Shown piece after piece: positions 54,773 through 64,000 of a stretch of 64,000 nt of DNA (positions are counted from its first letter, which is position 1; every line of letters starts with the position of its first letter). Origin of the DNA: Gammaproteobacteria bacterium. GTDB taxonomy: Bacteria; Pseudomonadota; Gammaproteobacteria; Burkholderiales; Gallionellaceae. Both the position numbers and the translations under genes were made by a program. The stretch is taken from contig JAHJBC010000006.1 of the NCBI GenBank assembly GCA_018813765.1, positions 372,001-436,000 of the forward strand. The letters run 5' to 3'. The notes below the pieces were generated by a model. That model saw only the letters and a list, made by a program, of their open reading frames with translations. It had not been told where the DNA came from and made no database searches.

Positions 54773-56056
54773 ATGCCACCACTCAGAGTCCAGGGCCATC
54801 CGGTGCTGATCATCGGCGCCGGGCGCGGCGGCTCTGCGCTGCTCGAAATGTTCATGGAAGACGACATGGTCACGGTGGTGGCCGTGGTGGATACCAATGC
54901 GGACGCACCCGGTATCCAGTTGGCGCGGCGGCTCGACATACCGACTTACAGCGACGCCGCCGAGGCGATTGAAGCCTGCAAGGACTACACCGATTGCATC
55001 GTGTACAACCTGTCGCACGACGACACCATCGCCGACAAGGTGCGCAGCGTATTCGGCGACAACCGCGTGGCCAGCGGGCCCGAGGTGATGCTGTTCTGGC
55101 AGATGGTGACCAAGCTGAAGCAGACCAAGGTCGAGCTGGAAAAAAGCCAGCACCAGTTGCAGGCCATCATCAGCAATGTGATGGACGGCATCATCACCAT
55201 CAGCGAGTTCGGCGACATAGAAGGATTCAACCCCGCAGCCGAGGGCATCTTCGGTTACGCGCAGGACGAGGTGGTGGGGAAGAACGTCAGCATCCTGATG
55301 TCCGAGCCTGACCGCAGCGCGCACGACAGCTACCTCAGGCGCTACCTGCAATCCGGTCACAGCGAAGTGCTGGGTGTGCGCGGACGCGAAGTGAACGCGG
55401 TGCGCAAGAACGGCGAAGTGTTTCCCATGGAGCTCTCCGCCTCGGAGATGATGCTGGGCGGGCAGCGCTATTTCATCGGCATCGTGCGCGACATCACCGA
55501 ACGCAAACTGGCCGAGAAGAAGATCGCCCACCTCGCCCACTTCGACTACCTCACCGACCTGCCCAACCGCGCACTGTTCCTCGACATTCTCGACCGCTCC
55601 ATCTCCCTGGCCAGACGCAACAAGCACAAGGCCGCCGTGATGTTCCTCGACCTCGACGGCTTCAAAAAGATCAACGACACCCTGGGCCACGACGCGGGCG
55701 ATTTGCTGCTCAAGGGCGTGGCGGGCAGGCTCAGGCAGACCATACGCGAGTCGGATACCGTGGCACGGGTGGGCGGCGACGAATTCATCCTGCTGCTGAA
55801 CAACATCGCAACGGAAGCCAACGCGGCGCTGGTGGCGGCAAAGATGCTGGCCGCGCTGTCCGCCCCCTTCGATCTCAAGGGCCAGCCAGGCCATATCGGC
55901 GGCAGTATCGGCATCGCGCTGTTCCCGGACGACGCGACCGACACCCGCGAACTCGTCAAGCAGGCAGATGAGGCGATGTACCTGGCGAAGCAGAGCGGCA
56001 AGAACAATTGCAAATTTTATGCTGAGGTGTTGAAGCTGCGGCGCGGGCAGGTGTAG
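54773..56056 (+). CDS. Rossmann-fold - PAS - GGDEF diguanylate cyclase
   Basis: 427 residues, soluble. Residues 1-115 are a Rossmann-like nucleotide-binding domain (VLIIGAGRGGSALLEMF, VAVVDTNADAPGIQLARRLDIP, then a CoA/NAD-binding-like stretch). A coiled linker leads to PAS (about 125-245) and GGDEF (about 255-420) with MFLDLDGFKKIND, GGDEF intact and RESD 5 residues upstream as inhibitory site. A GGDEF enzyme sensing NAD(P) or a dinucleotide-like ligand is unusual. A bidirectional terminator follows. Confidence 0.88.
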   Translation: MPPLRVQGHPVLIIGAGRGGSALLEMFMEDDMVTVVAVVDTNADAPGIQLARRLDIPTYSDAAEAIEACKDYTDCIVYNLSHDDTIADKVRSVFGDNRVASGPEVMLFWQMVTKLKQTKVELEKSQHQLQAIISNVMDGIITISEFGDIEGFNPAAEGIFGYAQDEVVGKNVSILMSEPDRSAHDSYLRRYLQSGHSEVLGVRGREVNAVRKNGEVFPMELSASEMMLGGQRYFIGIVRDITERKLAEKKIAHLAHFDYLTDLPNRALFLDILDRSISLARRNKHKAAVMFLDLDGFKKINDTLGHDAGDLLLKGVAGRLRQTIRESDTVARVGGDEFILLLNNIATEANAALVAAKMLAALSAPFDLKGQPGHIGGSIGIALFPDDATDTRELVKQADEAMYLAKQSGKNNCKFYAEVLKLRRGQV

Positions 56057-56142: not shown

Positions 56143-57141
56143 TTAGAATGTCTTCTTCAGGCCAACAACCACGATAGTCGTGTCAGCAGCAACATTGGCT
56201 GTCTTGGTGTTGATCTTGTGCACGGCGCCGTAAGCGGTTGTGGTCTTGGACAGGCCTTGCAGGTAAGCGACAGTCATGGAGTTGTCGTCGTTGCCGGTGC
56301 CAGACATGCTGTTCTTGGCATAGCTACCCACCACTGCGCCAGGACCGACCGGAGCCACTACGCTGAAGGACATGGCCTTCTGGGTGGTAGCACCAGTAGT
56401 GTCAGTCTTGTTGGTCTGGTAGGTACCCATCAGCTTGGCTGCACCCAGGTCATAGGAAGCGCCAACGGCCATGTCAGTGGTCTTGGCATAACCAGTGTCG
56501 TCATTGGCTGTGCCGGCATACACGCCGCCAACTGCCAGAGGACCAGCCTTATAGGTGGCAGACAGCAGGGTAGCAGTGGTCTTGTTGCCAGAGGTGGTGC
56601 CGGAAGCGACCATGCCGGTGTTGGCGAAGTCGGTGGTGTAGTTCACAGCAACGGTCACGCCGCCCAGATCGGGCGAGATGTAGGCCAGTGCGTTCTGAGC
56701 GCGGGCAGCTGCTGCACCGGAACCGATCAGGAAGCCGCTGTTGACGCGAGTCAGCGGAGACACCTGAGAGCCGGAGGCCGGGTCGAACATGCCTTGCCAG
56801 TCGTAGCCAGTGGTCTGCAGGTAGCCTGCTGCCACGGTGCCGAAGCCGCCAGCCAGGGCCAGCATCTCTTGACGAGCAGCCAGAACGCCGTCAGAGAGTT
56901 GCGAGTCCAGCTTGTATTCGATCTTGGCGATGGCCTTCATGCCATTGTCCAGGTCTTCCGCTGCGACCACGCCGATGCGGGAGCCGGACAGACCGCCGGA
57001 GAGGGAGCGGATGTCGCTCTTCATGCCGGTGGCGGAAATGCTGGCCACGGCTGCGTCAACGATGCCGTACACGGTCGCTTCGGCGAAAGCCGAGGTGGAG
57101 AATGCTGCAGTCACTGCCAGAGCGATGAGTTTCTTTTGCAT
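56143..57141 (-). CDS. Gram-negative (betaproteobacterial) porin
   Basis: 332 residues. Signal peptide (LIALAVTAAFSTSAFAE) then ATVYGIVDAAVAS.., SGSRIGVVAAEDLDNGMKAIAKIEY and the closing VVVGLKKTF with terminal Phe, as in the beta-proteobacterial general porin family. Forms a 16-stranded trimeric pore for small solutes. Codon use is strongly biased, typical of high expression. CAAGGAG precedes the ATG. Confidence 0.92.
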   Translation of the reverse strand: MQKKLIALAVTAAFSTSAFAEATVYGIVDAAVASISATGMKSDIRSLSGGLSGSRIGVVAAEDLDNGMKAIAKIEYKLDSQLSDGVLAARQEMLALAGGFGTVAAGYLQTTGYDWQGMFDPASGSQVSPLTRVNSGFLIGSGAAAARAQNALAYISPDLGGVTVAVNYTTDFANTGMVASGTTSGNKTTATLLSATYKAGPLAVGGVYAGTANDDTGYAKTTDMAVGASYDLGAAKLMGTYQTNKTDTTGATTQKAMSFSVVAPVGPGAVVGSYAKNSMSGTGNDDNSMTVAYLQGLSKTTTAYGAVHKINTKTANVAADTTIVVVGLKKTF

Positions 57142-57914: not shown

Positions 57915-60305
57915 ATGAATACAGAGCAATTCAAAGTGGTGATTATCGGTGGCGGTCCCGGCGGTTTGTCGGCGGCCGTGCGTGCGACCGAGCTTGGTAT
58001 TTCCCACGTATTGCTGGAGGGTTCGCCCCACTTGGCGAATACGATCCGGCATTTCCAGAAAGGCAAGCTGGTGATGGCTGAGCCATCCCAACTGCCTTTG
58101 CGCAGTGCGCTGCCTTTTGGCGCGGGTGTGCGCGAACATATTCTGCAACAGTGGCGCGACGAGGTTGCCGCCAAGGCAGTGAACTGCCGCACGGACGCGA
58201 CGGTCACGGGCATTTCGGGGCGGCGCGGCGATTTTTGCATCACTCTGGCTGATGGCGAGCCGGTGAAGGCGGAGTGTGTGGTGCTTGCCATCGGCGTGCA
58301 GGGAAATATCCGCAAGCTGGATGTGCCGGGCGAGAATTTGCCCGGCGTTCAATACCATCTGGACGATCCTGATGAATTCGCCAATGAAACCATTGTCGTT
58401 GTGGGCGGCGGCGATGCGGGCGTCGAGAACGCGTTGGCTTTGTGCGACAGGAATCGGGTCATTTTGATCAACAGACAGGATGAATTCAGCAACTGCAGGG
58501 AAGCCAACTTCGATCTGCTGATGGCGGCGGTATCCGAAGGCAGGATGGAGATACGTGTGAACACCTGGACCGAGCAGGTGGTGGAAACCGGGGGGGGATA
58601 TCCGCTGTTGTTTGTCGCGCAGACCCCGCAGGGCAAGGAAAAGATCGCATGCCATCGCGTCATCGCCCGCCTGGGGGCGGTTCCGCCGCGCAAGCTGCTG
58701 GAGAGTTTCGGCATCCGCATCCCCAATTCGGACATGAGTTCGGTGCCGCAGATCAACGAGCGTTACGAATCCAACGTTCCCGGTCTTTACATCGTCGGGG
58801 CGCTGGCCGGTTATTCGCTGATCAAACAGGCGATCAATCAGGGTTGCGAAGCGATCGAATATATCCTCGGGCTCGAGGTCGAGCCTGCGGATGAAGGCAT
58901 GCTGCGGGAAAGATTTGCCCATGTGCGCAGGGTCGGCTCGGTGAACGAGGGTATTGAGCTGGTCAAGGAGAATGCCGCTCACTTCGAGGTGCTGAACTCG
59001 CTCCAGTTGCGCGAACTGGTGCAGCACAGCCAGTTGCGCGATTTTTTGCCGGGGGAAGTGGTTTTCGAACGCAACGATTACAGCAACAGCTTCTTTTCCA
59101 TCCTTTCCGGTTCGGTAAGCATCGAGACGGAAGACGAGGAGGGGAGCGTGGCGAACTTCATCCTGTCAGCCGGGAATTTCTTTGGCGAGATGGGTTTGCT
59201 GTCAGGCCGCCGCCGATCCGGCACTGTCATTGCAGGCGATGATTGCGTCCTGCTGGAAACGCCGCGCCGCTACATGCTCAACCTGCTGAACTCTTCGACG
59301 GCGGTACGCCGGAAGCTGGATGAAGTCGCGCTGAAACGCATCGTACAAACTTACCTTGATGCGGGACTGTCGGAAAGCGAGCTGGATTATCTGGTGCATG
59401 ATGCCAAGCTCAAGTGCTACTGCGTTGGCGAAACGATTTTCAAGGAAGGAGACAAGGCGGACGGCCTGTACATGATACGCCGTGGCTCGGTGACGGTTTC
59501 CCGCCTGATCTCGGGTAAGGAGGTCGTGCTGGCCTATGTTTCTGCGGGAAACTATGTGGGTGAGATGGGTCTGGTATCGAACAGTCCGCGCTCGGCCACC
59601 GTCAGGGCCGCCTCGCCAACCGAGGTGGTGTTGCTGGAGGCAGAGCGGGTGAAATCCGTTCTTGAGCGCAACTCATCCATCCGCTGCAAGGTTGATGGCC
59701 GTTACCTCGAGCATGTGCATTCCGGCGAAACCGGGCCCCTGCTCGAGCACGCCGGCATGGTGAAATTCCTGCTCGATCAGGGCGTGGGCGAAGCGACCGA
59801 TGTGTTGCTGATCGATTATTCGCGCTGCATCCGCTGCAACAACTGTGAAAAAGCCTGCGCCGATGTGAATGGCGGCGCTTCCCGTTTGAACAGCAAAGCC
59901 GGAGCAACGTACGAATATCTTCATCTGCCCGCGTCTTGCCGCCACTGTGAACATCCGCATTGCATGAAGGATTGTCCGCCCGATGCCATCCACCGCTCGG
60001 TCAACGGCGAGGTTTTTATCGGCGACAGTTGCGTCGGTTGCGGCAACTGCCAGCGCAATTGCCCCTACGACGTTATCCAGATGGTGTCCACAACCGAGCA
60101 TCCGCAACCCACCTGGTGGCAGGTATTGTTCGGGCAGGCAGCAACGACCGGGAAAACGGAAAATTCGAACGAGCCGAAAAAAGCGGTGAAGTGCGATATG
60201 TGCAAGGAAATCATCGCGGGGCCTGCCTGCGTCCGCCTCTGTCCGACGGGGGCAGCGATGCGTGTCAGCCCGGAAGCCCTGCTTGGTTTCATGAAAGAAT
60301 CGTGA
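57915..60305 (+). CDS. Flavoprotein - 2x cyclic-nucleotide-binding - 4x[4Fe-4S] fusion
   Basis: About 796 residues, no export signal. Residues 1-320: thioredoxin-reductase-like fold with FAD motif VVIIGGGPGGLSAA and NAD(P) motif VVVVGGGDAGVENAL, but no CxxC redox pair, so more like ferredoxin-NAD(P) reductases. About 370-490 and 500-610: two cNMP-binding domains, each with a phosphate-binding cassette (FFGEMGLLSGRRRSGTV; YVGEMGLVSNSPRSATV). About 640-790: ferredoxin region with CIRCNNCEKAC, CRHCEHPHCMKDC, CVGCGNCQRNC and CDMC..CVRLC, i.e. ligands for four [4Fe-4S] clusters as in HybA/DmsB-type subunits. Start set at MNTEQF, where the flavin fold begins. First gene of a three-gene operon. Confidence 0.9.
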   Translation: MNTEQFKVVIIGGGPGGLSAAVRATELGISHVLLEGSPHLANTIRHFQKGKLVMAEPSQLPLRSALPFGAGVREHILQQWRDEVAAKAVNCRTDATVTGISGRRGDFCITLADGEPVKAECVVLAIGVQGNIRKLDVPGENLPGVQYHLDDPDEFANETIVVVGGGDAGVENALALCDRNRVILINRQDEFSNCREANFDLLMAAVSEGRMEIRVNTWTEQVVETGGGYPLLFVAQTPQGKEKIACHRVIARLGAVPPRKLLESFGIRIPNSDMSSVPQINERYESNVPGLYIVGALAGYSLIKQAINQGCEAIEYILGLEVEPADEGMLRERFAHVRRVGSVNEGIELVKENAAHFEVLNSLQLRELVQHSQLRDFLPGEVVFERNDYSNSFFSILSGSVSIETEDEEGSVANFILSAGNFFGEMGLLSGRRRSGTVIAGDDCVLLETPRRYMLNLLNSSTAVRRKLDEVALKRIVQTYLDAGLSESELDYLVHDAKLKCYCVGETIFKEGDKADGLYMIRRGSVTVSRLISGKEVVLAYVSAGNYVGEMGLVSNSPRSATVRAASPTEVVLLEAERVKSVLERNSSIRCKVDGRYLEHVHSGETGPLLEHAGMVKFLLDQGVGEATDVLLIDYSRCIRCNNCEKACADVNGGASRLNSKAGATYEYLHLPASCRHCEHPHCMKDCPPDAIHRSVNGEVFIGDSCVGCGNCQRNCPYDVIQMVSTTEHPQPTWWQVLFGQAATTGKTENSNEPKKAVKCDMCKEIIAGPACVRLCPTGAAMRVSPEALLGFMKES

Positions 60306-60337
60306 GCGGCATGCAGCATTCTGAATCGAGGTGACAA

Positions 60338-61297
60338 ATGGATCTGGTGCAAAGACCCAACGTATTGAGATACAACAAAGGCCGTTACTTGAAGCTGGGC
60401 GGCTGGCTTGTTCTGCTGGCGGTGGCCGGGTACGTGTTGTTTGATCCGGTAGCAACGGAGTCGCACGGCGGCACGCCGATGGGATATGTGCTGGGCATAC
60501 TCTCACTGCTGATCGTGTTCCTGCTGTTCTGGTACGGTATCCATAAGCGCCACCCGGTTTCCGACCGGAACAGGCGGATCTCGGAAAGAAGGAAACCCGA
60601 AGGATGGGATTCGGACGTTGCTTCAGTTCGCAGGGAACAGCGCAGGAATTCCAATCCGCAACAGAGTTGGCGTTACGGCCAGACCCAGCAAGGATGGCTC
60701 TCGCTGCATATCAATCTCGGCGGGGCGCTTGTTGTTCTGGCCACCCTGCATACCGGTTTTGAATTCGGCTGGAATGTGCACACGTTGAGCTACGGACTGA
60801 TGATGATCGTGATCGCGAGCGGATTCTATGGTTTGTATGCCTACCTCAATTACCCGCGCCTGATTACCGACAACATGGAAGAAGATACGCTGGAGAGCTT
60901 GTTGTTCAAGATCGACGACCTGGATGAGCAGGCGAGGGTCAGGGCGCTCGATCTGCCGGATGACGTGAATGAACTGGTTTTCGATTCGCGGCAGGGGACG
61001 ACGATAGGGGGCGGTCTCATGCAGCAGATATTTGGAAAACAATCGCACTGTCCGACAGCGTTTGCGGTTCGGCAGATTCGCCGGCTCGGACAAAAATACA
61101 TTGCCGACGAGCAGCCAAAATTCATGCGGGAGCTCTACCTGTTGCTGCTGCGCAAGGAGCGTCTGGTTGAAAGGGCGCGCAAGGCCGTCATGTTGCAAGC
61201 CCGGTTGAATGCCTGGTTGTATTTGCATGTTCCGCTGGCTATCGCATTGCTGGCGGCATTGGCGGTGCATGTCCTGTCGGTTTTATTCTTCTGGTGA
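60338..61297 (+). CDS. b-type cytochrome-like membrane protein
   Basis: 319 residues. Membrane segments at about 19-40, 49-68, 120-145, 150-172 and 292-318. Candidate heme ligands lie in them: His in SLHINLGG, TLHTGFE, NVHTLS, YLHVPLA and AVHVLS. A charged cytoplasmic/periplasmic loop (about 175-285) is of unknown fold. The pattern suggests a di-heme quinone- or iron-sulfur-linked cytochrome b, like those joining ferredoxin subunits to periplasmic carriers. Thirty-two bases after the flavoprotein gene, with GAGGTGA as ribosome site. Confidence 0.8.
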   Translation: MDLVQRPNVLRYNKGRYLKLGGWLVLLAVAGYVLFDPVATESHGGTPMGYVLGILSLLIVFLLFWYGIHKRHPVSDRNRRISERRKPEGWDSDVASVRREQRRNSNPQQSWRYGQTQQGWLSLHINLGGALVVLATLHTGFEFGWNVHTLSYGLMMIVIASGFYGLYAYLNYPRLITDNMEEDTLESLLFKIDDLDEQARVRALDLPDDVNELVFDSRQGTTIGGGLMQQIFGKQSHCPTAFAVRQIRRLGQKYIADEQPKFMRELYLLLLRKERLVERARKAVMLQARLNAWLYLHVPLAIALLAALAVHVLSVLFFW

Positions 61298-61302
61298 CGT
61301 TC

Positions 61303-62976
61303 ATGATCTCCTGTTTGCTGGTTCATCTGTCCCGCAACGCGCAGGGTCTGTCGGTTCGCAAGGAAACTGTCGTTTCCGGCGAATCGCTGACTATCGGCAG
61401 GGGCGCCGATTGCAAGATACATTTGCAGGATCATCAGGTGTATCTGCATCATGCAACGATCAAACGCTCCGATGACGGGGTGATTTATCTGGAGAGCGAA
61501 AGGAACGCAGGGATCAGTCTTAACGGGTTGATCGGGCAAAGCGTGGCGCTTTCGGTCGGCGCCCGCATCGAGATCGGCCCGTACCAGATGGAAGTCTTGC
61601 CGCCGCCCGATGGCTATGACATCGGCTTGTCCGTCGAATTGCTGCAATCCCACCAGCTTGAGCGTGCAGCAGCGAAAATGCAGCGCCAGGGGATGACGAT
61701 CGGGGCGCTGGGGATCAGCAAACGCAAACTGGGTGCGGCGCTCGTCGTATTCATTTTGTTTGCGTTCCTGCTGGTGCCGTTGTTGCCCAAAGCCTTTTCC
61801 GGGATTGACCAGTGGCAATCCGCATCCCATATCAGTCTGGCCGCTTCCTGGAGCGCAGGAGATCTGAGCGCCGGTCATGCCGTGTTTGGCGCGAAATGCA
61901 CCGTATGCCATCAGCAAGCCTTCCGTGAAGTCGGCGACGGTGTCTGCACCGGTTGCCACAAGAACATCACCGGCGAAGCGGACAGCCGCCATGAACACAA
62001 TGTCATGCCGGACACAATGCATTGCCACGATTGCCACAAAGACCATAAGGGGAAGAGCGGCCTGGCAATGCCGGGATCTTCCCGTTGCGTGGAGTGTCAT
62101 GCCGGACTCAAGCAAAGTAAGGATGACACGCAATATGCGGATGCGGCGGATTTTGGCAAGAAGCATCCGGTCTTTCGCATCGGGATGGCAAAAGTCGGCG
62201 GCGGCGTTAATCTGGTTGCGCCGGACGATAAGGCATCCCTGATAGACAAGACCGGGCTCAAGCTTTCCCACAAGATTCATATGGCGGAGAAAGGCATTGC
62301 CGGTGCCCGGAGCGATATTGTGATGAAGTGTCGGGATTGTCACCGGCTCGAAGATTCAGGCGAGCACTTTGCCCCCATCGAGATGAAGCGGGACTGCCAG
62401 CAATCGGGTTGCCATCGCCTCTATTACGGCGAGCCGGTAGACGGCAGGGCGTTGCACGGTCCGGTGAGCAGCGTGACGCAATACGTTCGCGATTTTTATT
62501 TCAACGAAATCTCGACGCAGTCCGGGATGCCGCATCCAGAATGCAGGCAGTTAAAAGGAAGAGCTGAGCAAAGAATGCTTGATTGCGTCAACATTCTCGC
62601 CCAGCAGACTCTGGCTAGCTCGGTGTTCAGGAAAGACATGGGCTGCGGCGAGTGCCATGAGATCACCCAATTGGGCGACACGCCGGCGGATTGGCAATTC
62701 GCGCCGGTGAAAATAGCGCGGGACTGGTATCCGACTTCGGTCTTTTCGCATGCAAAGCATAATGCGACGGAATGCATCGCATGCCACGACAAGAAAAATT
62801 CCTCGTCGAGCGCCGATATTTCCATGCCCGACATCGAAAAATGCCGCGAGTGCCATACCGGCGAGAATGCAGTGAAATACAAGGTAGCCAGCGGTTGCGA
62901 TTCCTGCCACCAATTCCATGGCACGGGAAAGCATGTCTGGAAAAAACAGCAGGAACCGGTCGCGGTGCGGAAGTGA
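61303..62976 (+). CDS. FHA - transmembrane - multiheme cytochrome c
   Basis: 557 residues. N-terminal FHA-like fold (about 1-105) with LTIGRGADCKIHLQ and HHATI, but the usual phosphothreonine-binding Ser is not where expected (VYLHH in place of VSR-x-H). One membrane segment (about 140-162), so the C-terminus is periplasmic. It carries nine CxxCH heme sites (CTVCH, CTGCH, CHDCH, CVECH, CRDCH, CGECH, CIACH, CRECH, CDSCH) plus one CQQSGCH (Cx4CH). Start ATG at 61303; a GTG at 61294 overlaps the previous stop. Third gene of the operon; should accept electrons from the cytochrome b. Confidence 0.88.
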   Translation: MISCLLVHLSRNAQGLSVRKETVVSGESLTIGRGADCKIHLQDHQVYLHHATIKRSDDGVIYLESERNAGISLNGLIGQSVALSVGARIEIGPYQMEVLPPPDGYDIGLSVELLQSHQLERAAAKMQRQGMTIGALGISKRKLGAALVVFILFAFLLVPLLPKAFSGIDQWQSASHISLAASWSAGDLSAGHAVFGAKCTVCHQQAFREVGDGVCTGCHKNITGEADSRHEHNVMPDTMHCHDCHKDHKGKSGLAMPGSSRCVECHAGLKQSKDDTQYADAADFGKKHPVFRIGMAKVGGGVNLVAPDDKASLIDKTGLKLSHKIHMAEKGIAGARSDIVMKCRDCHRLEDSGEHFAPIEMKRDCQQSGCHRLYYGEPVDGRALHGPVSSVTQYVRDFYFNEISTQSGMPHPECRQLKGRAEQRMLDCVNILAQQTLASSVFRKDMGCGECHEITQLGDTPADWQFAPVKIARDWYPTSVFSHAKHNATECIACHDKKNSSSSADISMPDIEKCRECHTGENAVKYKVASGCDSCHQFHGTGKHVWKKQQEPVAVRK

Positions 62977-63035: not shown

Positions 63036-63569
63036 TCAGATGGATTCGGCGTTTCCTTTCGCTTTCAGCAACACCCTTACCGCTCCGCCGCCGCCCGCAT
63101 TCGGCGGTGCTTCGCAGAACGCCAGCACTTGCGCATGCTGCGTCAGCCAGTGGCGCGTATTCACTTTTAATATCCCGTCGCGTCCCTCGCTGCGCCAGCC
63201 CTTGCCGTGAATGACGTTGACGCAGCGCAGCCCGCGTTGCCCGGCCTGATGCAGGAATTCCGCCAGCAATCTTCTGGCTTCGTCGTTGGTGAGACCATGC
63301 AGGTCGAGTTCGTCCTCTATCGGCCATCTGCTGCGGCGCAGGTCGCGCAGGGTCATGCGGCTGATGCCGTTGCGCAGGAATTCGGTGATGGCAGTGTCGC
63401 CCGCGCCATGGTCGGAGAGGGTGTCGGGGATGGGGGAGGTGAGTGCGGCAGAGATGGGCGCTCTGCGCGGTTTCGGTTTGGGGGTGATGCGGTCCGGAGG
63501 CGGGAGCGGGGTGACGCCTTCCAGCGCCTGCCGGAACAAGTCTGTGTCCTGTTCCGGCTTTTCTTTCAC
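63036..63569 (-). CDS. Smr-domain protein
   Basis: 177 residues. Pro-rich N-terminus, then an Smr domain (about 85-175) with ELDLHGLTNDEARRLLAEFL and VNVIHGKGWRSEGRDGILK, the hallmarks of MutS2-type Smr nicking endonuclease domains. Stand-alone Smr proteins are thought to act in mRNA or DNA cleavage. Convergent with the cytochrome operon. Confidence 0.9.
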   Translation of the reverse strand: MKEKPEQDTDLFRQALEGVTPLPPPDRITPKPKPRRAPISAALTSPIPDTLSDHGAGDTAITEFLRNGISRMTLRDLRRSRWPIEDELDLHGLTNDEARRLLAEFLHQAGQRGLRCVNVIHGKGWRSEGRDGILKVNTRHWLTQHAQVLAFCEAPPNAGGGGAVRVLLKAKGNAESI

Positions 63570-63578
63570 GCGCTGCCT

Positions 63579-64000
<422 letters not shown>

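What the first reader, a model, noticed from the sequence alone, without database searches (positions are those of the whole stretch)
57915..62976. Candidate new electron-transfer complex: cNMP-gated flavo-ferredoxin, cytochrome b and FHA-anchored multiheme cytochrome c
Three co-directional, tightly spaced genes cover a full path. NAD(P)H flavoprotein domain without CxxC, four [4Fe-4S] clusters, a His-rich membrane cytochrome, and a periplasmic cytochrome with nine or ten hemes are encoded in that order. Two cyclic-nucleotide-binding domains are built into the first subunit and an FHA-like domain faces the cytoplasm on the third. Such regulatory modules inside an electron-transport complex are unusual. 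They suggest that electron flow to or from the periplasm is switched by a nucleotide signal and possibly by phosphorylation. Motifs are read directly; gating and direction of flow are inference.
Basis: partly seen in the sequence, partly recalled or inferred. Interest (0 to 1): 0.9.

Follow-up and report, generated by a model that had tools for sequence, protein, structure and literature searches.

The report
Cyclic-nucleotide-linked transmembrane electron-transfer complex
Three neighbouring genes in an iron-oxidiser-family bacterium look like one machine that moves electrons from NAD(P)H inside the cell to a ten-heme cytochrome outside the inner membrane, with two built-in sensors for a cyclic-nucleotide signal; the same set recurs in many other bacteria and I found no study of it.

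Summary
At 57915-62976 lie three adjacent co-directional genes. P1: TrxR/FNR-like flavin domain without CxxC, two cNMP-binding (CNB) domains, 16 Cys for four [4Fe-4S] clusters. P2: five-helix cytochrome b with two H-x13-H pairs. P3: FHA fold, one membrane helix, ten hemes. It is a unit: 59 of the 80 best named loci carry P1-P2-P3, P1 and P2 are one protein in two Magnetococcales MAGs, and in 369 genomes of the class the same 17 carry P1 and P2. In 10 of 80 loci the operon continues into a likely envelope part, with a large multiheme cytochrome in 8. The CNB phosphate-binding Glu and Arg are invariant in 17 diverse P1s. A CHASE2-cyclase lies between P1 and P2 in one genome; a CpdA/SpdA-like phosphodiesterase follows P3 on two Sphingobium plasmids. 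FHA phosphothreonine contacts are not conserved, so phosphorylation control is not supported. Best reading: an NAD(P)H:periplasmic-multiheme-cytochrome oxidoreductase switched by a cyclic nucleotide. Composition and synteny are shown; complex formation, gating, ligand and direction are inferred. A 2023 pangenome table lists a ten-heme 'Forkhead-associated protein', probably P3; I found no description of the complex.

The parts
57915..60305 (+). P1: flavin/NAD(P)H domain + two CNB domains + four-cluster [4Fe-4S] ferredoxin domain, 796 aa (an in-frame ATG also lies 9 bases upstream)
57930..58889 (+). TrxR/YpdA/FNR-like FAD and NAD(P)H domain, no CxxC
   Evidence: Pyr_redox_2/3; YpdA among PDB sequences; for the homologue L050, fold matches to YpdA and TrxR-type ferredoxin-NADP reductases; 0 of 60 with CxxC
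59040..59354 (+). CNB1; phosphate-binding cassette Glu425 (59187) and Arg434 (59214)
59370..59714 (+). CNB2; phosphate-binding cassette Glu550 (59562) and Arg559 (59589)
   Evidence: the pair matches tandem CNBs of PKA regulatory subunits
59805..60263 (+). HydN/DmsB-like ferredoxin domain, 16 Cys
   Evidence: 16 Cys in 60 of 60
60338..61297 (+). P2: five-helix membrane cytochrome b; His124/138 (codons 60707, 60749), His297/311 (61226, 61268), extra invariant His148
   Evidence: invariant His in 17 of 17 rows; helices and loop charges; helices in the model of the fused homologue
61303..62976 (+). P3: FHA domain (cytoplasmic side by inference), one membrane helix, periplasmic decaheme cytochrome c, 557 aa from ATG (560 from GTG 61294)
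61360..61596 (+). FHA domain of P3 (contact residues for phosphothreonine not conserved)
61729..61785 (+). membrane helix of P3
61897..62910 (+). ten heme motifs, first bases 61897, 61945, 62023, 62086, 62329, 62395 (CX4CH), 62644, 62773, 62842, 62896
   Evidence: the ten motifs and ten further His are at least 95% conserved in 77 P3s

Best explanation
The three genes encode one inner-membrane complex, an NAD(P)H:periplasmic-multiheme-cytochrome oxidoreductase under cyclic-nucleotide control. NAD(P)H reduces the FAD of P1; single electrons pass through the four [4Fe-4S] clusters of P1 to the cytoplasmic-side heme b of P2, then to its periplasmic-side heme b, then into the ten-heme wire of P3, which hands them to small periplasmic cytochromes or, in lineages that have it, to an envelope part. 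The tandem CNB domains sit between the flavin and the Fe-S domain and bind a cyclic nucleotide (most likely cAMP), which changes their arrangement and so opens or closes electron flow. The FHA domain is a docking module that holds P3 to the cytoplasmic side of the complex, not a phosphate switch. Outward flow is downhill in redox terms and driven by the membrane potential, so an ungated complex would waste NAD(P)H and potential; that would explain a built-in switch. SHOWN: composition, residues, synteny, fusion, co-occurrence. INFERRED: complex formation in this species, path order, ligand, gating, direction, FHA role.
For: P1-P2-P3 in 59 of the 80 best named loci, median gaps 12 and 6 bases. 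P1-P2 fused in L050 and L055, two Magnetococcales MAGs, joining P1's ferredoxin end to P2's N-terminus, which is cytoplasmic by loop charge. The same 17 of 369 genomes carry P1 (E<=1e-60) and P2 (E<1e-40), 14 of them within 350 bases. All 16 Cys 60/60; ten heme motifs and ten further His at least 95% conserved in 77 P3s. CNB Glu/Arg 17/17 at four positions in P1s under 70% identical; 9 of 13 invariant CNB1 residues lie in the 18-residue cassette (p 8e-6), 6 of 12 in the 21 of CNB2 (p 0.008). A CHASE2-cyclase gene between P1 and P2 in both copies of genome G259, starting back to back with P2. A phosphodiesterase-like gene after P3 in the two Sphingobium records opened. Among 150 Methylophilaceae genomes 24 of 27 with P2 have a class III cyclase against 47 of 123 without. 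13 cyclase-domain matches in the window's genome. A parallel system sets a CNB-CNB-ferredoxin protein, a homologous cytochrome b and a homologous multiheme cytochrome beside an FNR-type NAD(P)H reductase (homology measured for L202).
Against: No biochemical data. Cyclase genes beside the module are rare: an HMM that I built from five cyclase domains found three in the loci scanned, two of them its own seeds; its sensitivity was not controlled. P2-P3 occur without P1 in 17 of 80 loci (in L042, L078, L095 and L113 the contig starts too close to P2 to judge; 13 remain), so P1 is not the only possible partner. The module is patchy: P2 in 16 of 149 genomes (the window's own and its relatives), 2 of the 22 same-genus genomes shown. 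The model of the P1-P2 fusion has pLDDT under 50 over most of the ferredoxin part, so no docking is shown. Cofactors were not modelled.
Confidence: 0.6

Rival explanations
1. Same complex, opposite direction: low-potential electrons from periplasmic or extracellular donors enter through P3 and P2 and reduce NAD(P)+ in P1, a regulated electron-uptake route in iron oxidisers.
For: The host family holds Fe(II) oxidisers with genes for reverse electron transport (PMC10734462, passages). The flavin domain's homologue resembles TrxR-type ferredoxin-NADP reductases. In 8 of 80 loci P1-P2-P3 is followed by a large multiheme cytochrome.
Against: Electrons would move inward against the membrane potential and could not be lifted from Fe(II) level to NAD+ by it (general bioenergetics, not computed). 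The module is also in Methylotenera, SAR116 and Sphingobium, not known to me as iron oxidisers (recalled).
Confidence: 0.2
2. The CNB domains are structural relics or serve assembly only, and the complex runs ungated whenever expressed.
For: No ligand or allostery is shown; the residue after the cassette Arg varies (435: S/T/P/A; 560: S/Y), so ligand type is not fixed.
Against: The phosphate-binding Glu and Arg are invariant at all four sites in 17 diverse P1s and invariant residues cluster in the cassettes; relics would drift.
Confidence: 0.15
3. P2-P3 is an older quinol-linked or general cytochrome b/multiheme unit of an envelope conduit; P1 is an add-on that feeds it in some lineages only.
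For: 17 of 80 loci have P2-P3 without P1, 13 of them with enough upstream DNA to tell. In the P2 tree of 83 rows P1 presence needs two changes.
Against: Compatible with the main reading for this window, where P1 is present; in the 369-genome sample P1 and strong P2 matches are in the same genomes.
Confidence: 0.3
4. The FHA domain does recognise phosphorylated partners and gives a second, phosphorylation switch.
For: FHA fold with Gly-Arg in 74 of 74 and the contact His in 60 of 74.
Against: Ser in 12 of 74 and Asn in 30 of 74 at the phosphothreonine contacts; in the window's P3 the Ser position is Tyr, the Asn is kept. Three of 77 aligned P3 homologues have no FHA there.
Confidence: 0.08

Closest known systems
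Hmc, Tmc and Qrc transmembrane redox complexes of sulfate reducers (composition recalled)
   Same: periplasmic multiheme c3-like cytochrome, membrane subunit, cytoplasmic [4Fe-4S] subunit; P3's profile matches the sixteen-heme and nine-heme cytochromes weakly (E 4.8e-5 and 2.5e-4) and P1's ferredoxin domain matches DsrO and similar subunits
   Different: no NrfD-like or CCG subunit among the three genes; flavin and CNB domains are not part of those complexes (recalled)
Cytochrome b561 / Ni-hydrogenase cytochrome b family (PF01292)
   Same: weak kinship of P2: the homologue in L117 passes the Pfam cut-off (30.9 against 30.1 bits, E 2.9e-7)
   Different: the window's P2 does not (15.8 bits) and matches no NCBIfam model; long cytoplasmic loop before the last helix
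NADPH oxidase / ferric reductase (FRD) family
   Same: NAD(P)H to FAD to two stacked hemes b with H-x13-H pairs, electrons expected to leave the cytoplasm (recalled)
   Different: P2 does not match Ferric_reduct (hhalign to one FRD protein not significant); the flavin domain is of TrxR type and four Fe-S clusters lie between
TrxR-type ferredoxin-NADP reductases and YpdA
   Same: FAD and NAD(P)H folds, no CxxC in P1
   Different: those are stand-alone enzymes; here fused to CNB and ferredoxin domains
PKA regulatory subunits and CRP (CNB domains)
   Same: tandem CNB with intact phosphate-binding cassettes
   Different: the output is a redox chain, not a kinase or DNA-binding domain
Cluster 403 'Forkhead-associated protein', 10 heme motifs, 27 of 87 iron-oxidising Gallionellaceae genomes (Table 1 of PMC10734462)
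   Same: probably the P3 family, by name, heme count and host family (not checked by sequence)
   Different: listed under 'Other'; the word occurs once in the main text, in that table (passages only); 'cyclic nucleotide' does not occur there
Geobacter Ext-type cytochromes (ExtM)
   Same: the large multiheme protein of the extended operons matches NCBIfam ExtM at E 1.7e-19
   Different: far below the model's cut-off (69.6 against 800 bits); not found in the window's genome

Membership tests
Hmc/Tmc/Qrc-type transmembrane redox complex | periplasmic multiheme cytochrome, cytoplasmic four-cluster Fe-S protein and NrfD or cytochrome b membrane subunit in one operon | tested here: inconclusive
   cytochrome and Fe-S parts present; no NrfD match and no above-cut-off match of P2 to any model
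Cytochrome b561 / Ni_hydr_CYTB | PF01292 match | tested here: inconclusive
   window P2 15.8 bits, below 30.1; L117 homologue 30.9 bits, above
Ferric reductase / NADPH oxidase | Ferric_reduct (PF01794) membrane domain | tested here: not met
   no match of P2; the family search in G000 rang only elsewhere, below cut-off; hhalign Prob 1.9% to one FRD protein
Ferric reductase / NADPH oxidase | two His pairs spaced x13 on two helices | tested here: met
   H124/H138 and H297/H311 invariant in 17 of 17; also true of other diheme b families (recalled)
Thioredoxin reductase | redox-active CxxC | tested here: not met
   0 of 60 P1s
TrxR-type ferredoxin-NAD(P) reductase | FAD and NAD(P)H folds without CxxC | tested here: met
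   cofactor preference and activity not tested
cNMP-binding CNB domain | phosphate-binding cassette Glu and Arg, nine residues apart (recalled) | tested here: met
   E425/R434 60/60 and 60/60, E550/R559 60/60 and 58/60
cNMP-binding CNB domain | binds a cyclic nucleotide | not testable with these tools
   needs binding assays
Phosphothreonine-binding FHA | Gly-Arg, Ser, His, Asn contacts conserved (recalled) | tested here: not met
   G, R 74/74; Ser 12/74; His 60/74; Asn 30/74
MtrCAB-like porin-cytochrome conduit | outer-membrane barrel with embedded multiheme cytochrome | tested here: inconclusive
   beside the operon only a general-porin-like ORF on the other strand (56143-57141, named by eye); the large multiheme partner of the extended operons is not in G000 while 3 control genomes rang; MtoAB and other conduits were not searched in this genome

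The most novel reading that the evidence does not exclude
A cyclic-nucleotide-gated electron channel: binding of cAMP (or another cyclic nucleotide) to the tandem CNBs directly and reversibly switches trans-membrane, and in lineages with the extended operon trans-envelope, electron export from NAD(P)H. Second messenger and respiratory wire would be joined in one protein, with no transcription in between, and a parallel system with a different NAD(P)H reductase would show that the CNB-ferredoxin unit is a reusable valve.
Probability: 0.42. Interest if true: 0.9.

Novelty: new variant of a known kind. Interest (0 to 1): 0.73.

Why it matters
Control of electron-transport complexes that I know of works by transcription, substrate, inhibitor proteins or membrane potential (recalled). 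A complex whose NAD(P)H-to-cytochrome path carries PKA-type cyclic-nucleotide sensors would be a new and direct way to open and close electron flow, testable on one purified protein. It would also give a function to a ten-heme protein that is probably the one counted in 27 of 87 iron-oxidiser genomes (PMC10734462, table passage), and to a module found here in SAR116, methylotroph and Sphingobium records, and would offer a switchable part for bioelectrochemistry.

Tried and rejected
Ferric reductase/NOX membership of P2: not supported. NrfD-like membrane subunit: no match. Thioredoxin/disulfide reductase function: no CxxC. FHA as phospho-switch: contacts not conserved. The large multiheme partner in the window's own genome: not found (three control genomes rang); other kinds of conduit were not searched. 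The 335-aa FHA protein of L039 that I first took for a cyclase has no Pfam cyclase match at E<=0.01 and only a weak NCBIfam one (E 3.3e-4); not used as evidence. A general rule that a cyclase sits beside the module fails: three matches, two of them seeds of my HMM. A phosphodiesterase relative was found only in the two Sphingobium loci. Docking of P1 on P2 from the fused model: ferredoxin region too uncertain. Ligand type from the residue after the cassette Arg: too variable. Promoter and terminator scans gave nothing useful. Alignments of the fusion with many P1 rows misplaced part of P2 and were replaced. GGDEF/EAL genes upstream of P1 in several loci and in the window suggested c-di-GMP as ligand; not pursued because such genes are common.

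Rows dropped before counts: the P1 counts use 60 rows of at least 780 aa out of 66; the P3 counts 77 rows of at least 500 aa out of 82, of which 74 have letters at the FHA positions; L025-L033 and L035 were left out as duplicates. The alignment behind the P3 model and its consensus (51 rows) leaves out the FHA-less homologues. The P2 tree uses 83 of 87 rows. P2 in the class sample: 48 of 369 genomes rang at E<=0.001, of which I counted the 17 below 1e-40; the other 31 (best 3.4e-12) were treated as other cytochromes b. That searches drew the same 150 genomes rests on their handles agreeing.

Full report
WHAT IS THERE. The window is part of a 3.14 Mb genome. A same-genus relative, G021, has a hit contig of the same length (431,612 bases) as a named Sideroxydans MAG contig, so I take the host for a Gallionellaceae bacterium. 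At 57915-62976 three genes follow each other on the + strand. P1 (796 aa) carries a Pyr_redox flavin domain, two CNB domains and 4Fe-4S domains; P2 (319 aa) matches no family above cut-off; P3 carries FHA and cytochrome c7/c3 domains. P3 has ten heme motifs, nine CxxCH and one CX4CH. Its better start is ATG 61303, five bases after the P2 stop.

IT IS A REAL UNIT. A profile of P2 found relatives in named genomes. Of the best 80 loci, 59 hold P1, P2 and P3; 17 hold P2 and P3 without P1 (in 4 of these the contig starts too close to P2 to judge); 4 are cut by contig ends. Gaps between genes have medians of 12 bases (P1-P2, 58 of 62 at most 50) and 6 bases (P2-P3, 72 of 79 at most 50; negative values include over-long ORF starts). 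Record titles include Sideroxydans, Gallionella, Ferrigenium, Methylotenera, Magnetococcales, Rhodospirillaceae, SAR116 and Oceanibacterium. Twelve Sphingobium plasmid records encode P3 relatives over 99-100% of the length at 26-29% identity; in the two records that I opened the three genes are again in order. In two Magnetococcales MAGs P1 and P2 are one ORF of 1123 and 1118 aa (L050, L055; 2 of 48 genomes of that order). In 369 genomes of the class, P1 at E<=1e-60 and P2 at E<1e-40 occur in the same 17 genomes: within 350 bases in 14, 6 and 13 kb apart in the two copies of G259, on different contigs in G186 and G376. Near relatives carry it patchily: 16 of 149 genomes, 2 of the 22 same-genus genomes shown.

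THE PARTS LOOK FUNCTIONAL. In 60 aligned P1s all 16 ferredoxin cysteines are conserved 60/60 and no flavin domain has CxxC. Among PDB sequences the flavin domain is closest to YpdA; the model of its homologue L050 matches TrxR-like proteins, YpdA and TrxR-type ferredoxin-NADP reductases. The CNB pair matches tandem CNBs of PKA regulatory subunits and PKG. The phosphate-binding Glu and Arg (positions recalled) are conserved 60/60, 60/60, 60/60 and 58/60, and 17/17 at all four sites among P1s under 70% identity. Nine of 13 invariant CNB1 residues fall in the 18-residue cassette (p 8e-6), 6 of 12 in the 21 residues of CNB2 (p 0.008). P2 has five predicted helices with a basic loop between helices 2 and 3 (13 K/R against 6 D/E), which puts its N-terminus and the long loop before helix 5 in the cytoplasm. 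H124/H138 lie on helix 3 and H297/H311 on helix 5, each pair 14 apart and invariant in 17 of 17 rows, as for two stacked hemes b; H148 is also invariant. One P2 homologue (L117) just passes the Pfam cut-off for cytochrome b561, so P2 is probably a distant cousin of that family. In P3 the ten heme motifs and ten further His are at least 95% conserved in 77 rows, as expected for bis-His hemes. The P3 model (mean pLDDT 79.9) gives an FHA fold (GarA, E 1.8e-6).

FHA. The usual phosphothreonine contacts (positions recalled) are not kept: Ser 12 of 74, Asn 30 of 74, His 60 of 74, while Gly-Arg is 74 of 74. Among P3s under 70% identity, with letters in 47 of 49, Ser is 8 and Asn 26. Three of 77 aligned homologues lack the FHA. 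I read it as a docking domain (inference).

THE CYCLIC-NUCLEOTIDE LINK. Beyond the CNBs: in genome G259 both copies of the module have a CHASE2-cyclase gene between P1 and P2, on the other strand and starting back to back with P2 (Guanylate_cyc E 7.7e-22 and 2.9e-22). On the two Sphingobium plasmids opened, P3 is followed in the same direction by a metallophosphoesterase closest to SpdA (E 1.9e-38 and 7e-40) and then CpdA (8e-22 and 9.2e-28), all below the curated cut-offs; a relative was found in no other scanned locus. Among 150 Methylophilaceae genomes, 24 of 27 with P2 have a class III cyclase against 47 of 123 without (Fisher one-sided p 1e-6); size and kinship were not controlled. Three carriers without a cyclase match still have the CNB2 cassette (CNB1 not assessed there). 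The window's genome has 13 cyclase-domain matches, and the four other carrier genomes tried all have some. Against a tight link: over the loci scanned, an HMM from five cyclase domains found three cyclases, two being its own seeds.

ARCHITECTURES. Type A, P1 with none of the outer set in the DNA held (52 of 80), mostly Gallionellaceae and Methylotenera; in 10 of these a malate:quinone oxidoreductase gene (Mqo, Pfam E 1.2e-229 for L069) follows P3, and DUF1924 monoheme genes (15 of 80) or small c-type cytochrome genes (7 of 80) lie near. Type B, P2-P3 followed by an HbpS-like protein, usually with a partner of about 600-960 aa without Pfam match and a cytochrome of about 1250 aa with ten CxxCH and LVIVD repeats, no P1 seen (14 of 80; in L078, L095 and L113 P1 cannot be excluded), often beside ccm-like genes (named by eye). 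Type C, P1-P2-P3 plus that outer set in one direction (10 of 80; the large cytochrome is seen in 8, the contig ends before it in L102 and L114), in records labelled Alphaproteobacteria, Rhodospirillaceae, SAR116 and Gammaproteobacteria among others; Sphingobium has the outer set on the other strand. The large cytochrome resembles ExtM distantly. It was not found in the window's genome while three control genomes rang. In the P2 tree (83 rows) P1 presence needs two changes, type A lying beside type B. Type D (L039, L202, L203): a CNB-CNB-ferredoxin protein without the flavin domain, a cytochrome b and a multiheme protein near an FNR-type NAD(P)H reductase with [2Fe-2S]; for L202 the cytochrome b and multiheme protein are homologous to P2 and P3 (hhalign E 7e-9 and 1.6e-13). 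Two unrelated NAD(P)H reductases on the same CNB-ferredoxin plan support NAD(P)H as the cytoplasmic partner and CNB as a standing part of the design.

MECHANISM. NAD(P)H, FAD, four [4Fe-4S], two hemes b and ten hemes c in that order is the path that best fits topology and the natural fusion. Outward flow is favoured by redox potential and by membrane potential (general bioenergetics), hence a leak unless gated; this is my reason for outward flow with an off-state, and it is inference. Inward flow is a live rival in iron oxidisers.

WHAT IS KNOWN. Ten paper searches gave no description of the complex: searches returned no paper, only PMC10734462, that paper and two unrelated ones (listing only), and (any 3 of 5 terms) 282 papers, of which the 20 listed hold no 'cyclic nucleotide-binding domain'. 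The library holds open-licence papers only and no bioRxiv preprints. PMC10734462 (passages seen) lists a ten-heme 'Forkhead-associated protein' in 27 of 87 genomes; the word occurs once in its main text. That this is P3 is my inference.

VERDICT.

Noticed in passing
L202:5844-13149, L203:8070-13986, L039:2597-11640: A parallel cluster (type D): FNR-type NAD(P)H reductase with [2Fe-2S], CNB-CNB-ferredoxin protein, cytochrome b, ten- or eleven-heme protein, plus other multiheme cytochromes, in two Magnetococcales genomes and one genome of the window's order.
   Followed up: partly
L109:9956-20402 and L117:7486-20513: Extended operons: P2-P3 (L109, without P1; L117, with P1), HbpS-like protein, a 600-650 aa partner without Pfam match, a 1250-1290 aa ten-heme LVIVD cytochrome distantly like ExtM; a candidate envelope-spanning conduit.
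   Followed up: partly
L065, L069, L070, L073, L077, L083, L084, L086, L087, L089: A malate:quinone oxidoreductase gene follows P3 closely in the same direction in these Methylotenera-type loci.
   Followed up: no
window 54773-56056: A PAS-GGDEF-like gene (named by eye) lies upstream on the + strand; GGDEF/EAL-like genes also precede P1 in several Methylotenera and Gallionella loci (for example L070).
   Followed up: no
window 56143-57141: A general-porin-like ORF on the - strand (named by eye) lies about 770 bases upstream of P1.
   Followed up: no
window 63036-63968: Downstream on the - strand: an Smr-domain-like gene and the end of a thioredoxin-reductase-like gene, convergent with the operon (named by eye, not searched).
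   Followed up: no
L049:6944-11568: In a Comamonadaceae MAG P1 is split into two ORFs and P3 into three, probably frameshifts or assembly errors.
   Followed up: no
L037:2-2020: A class III cyclase-like ORF at the locus edge, about 7 kb from a P2-P3 operon without P1.
   Followed up: no
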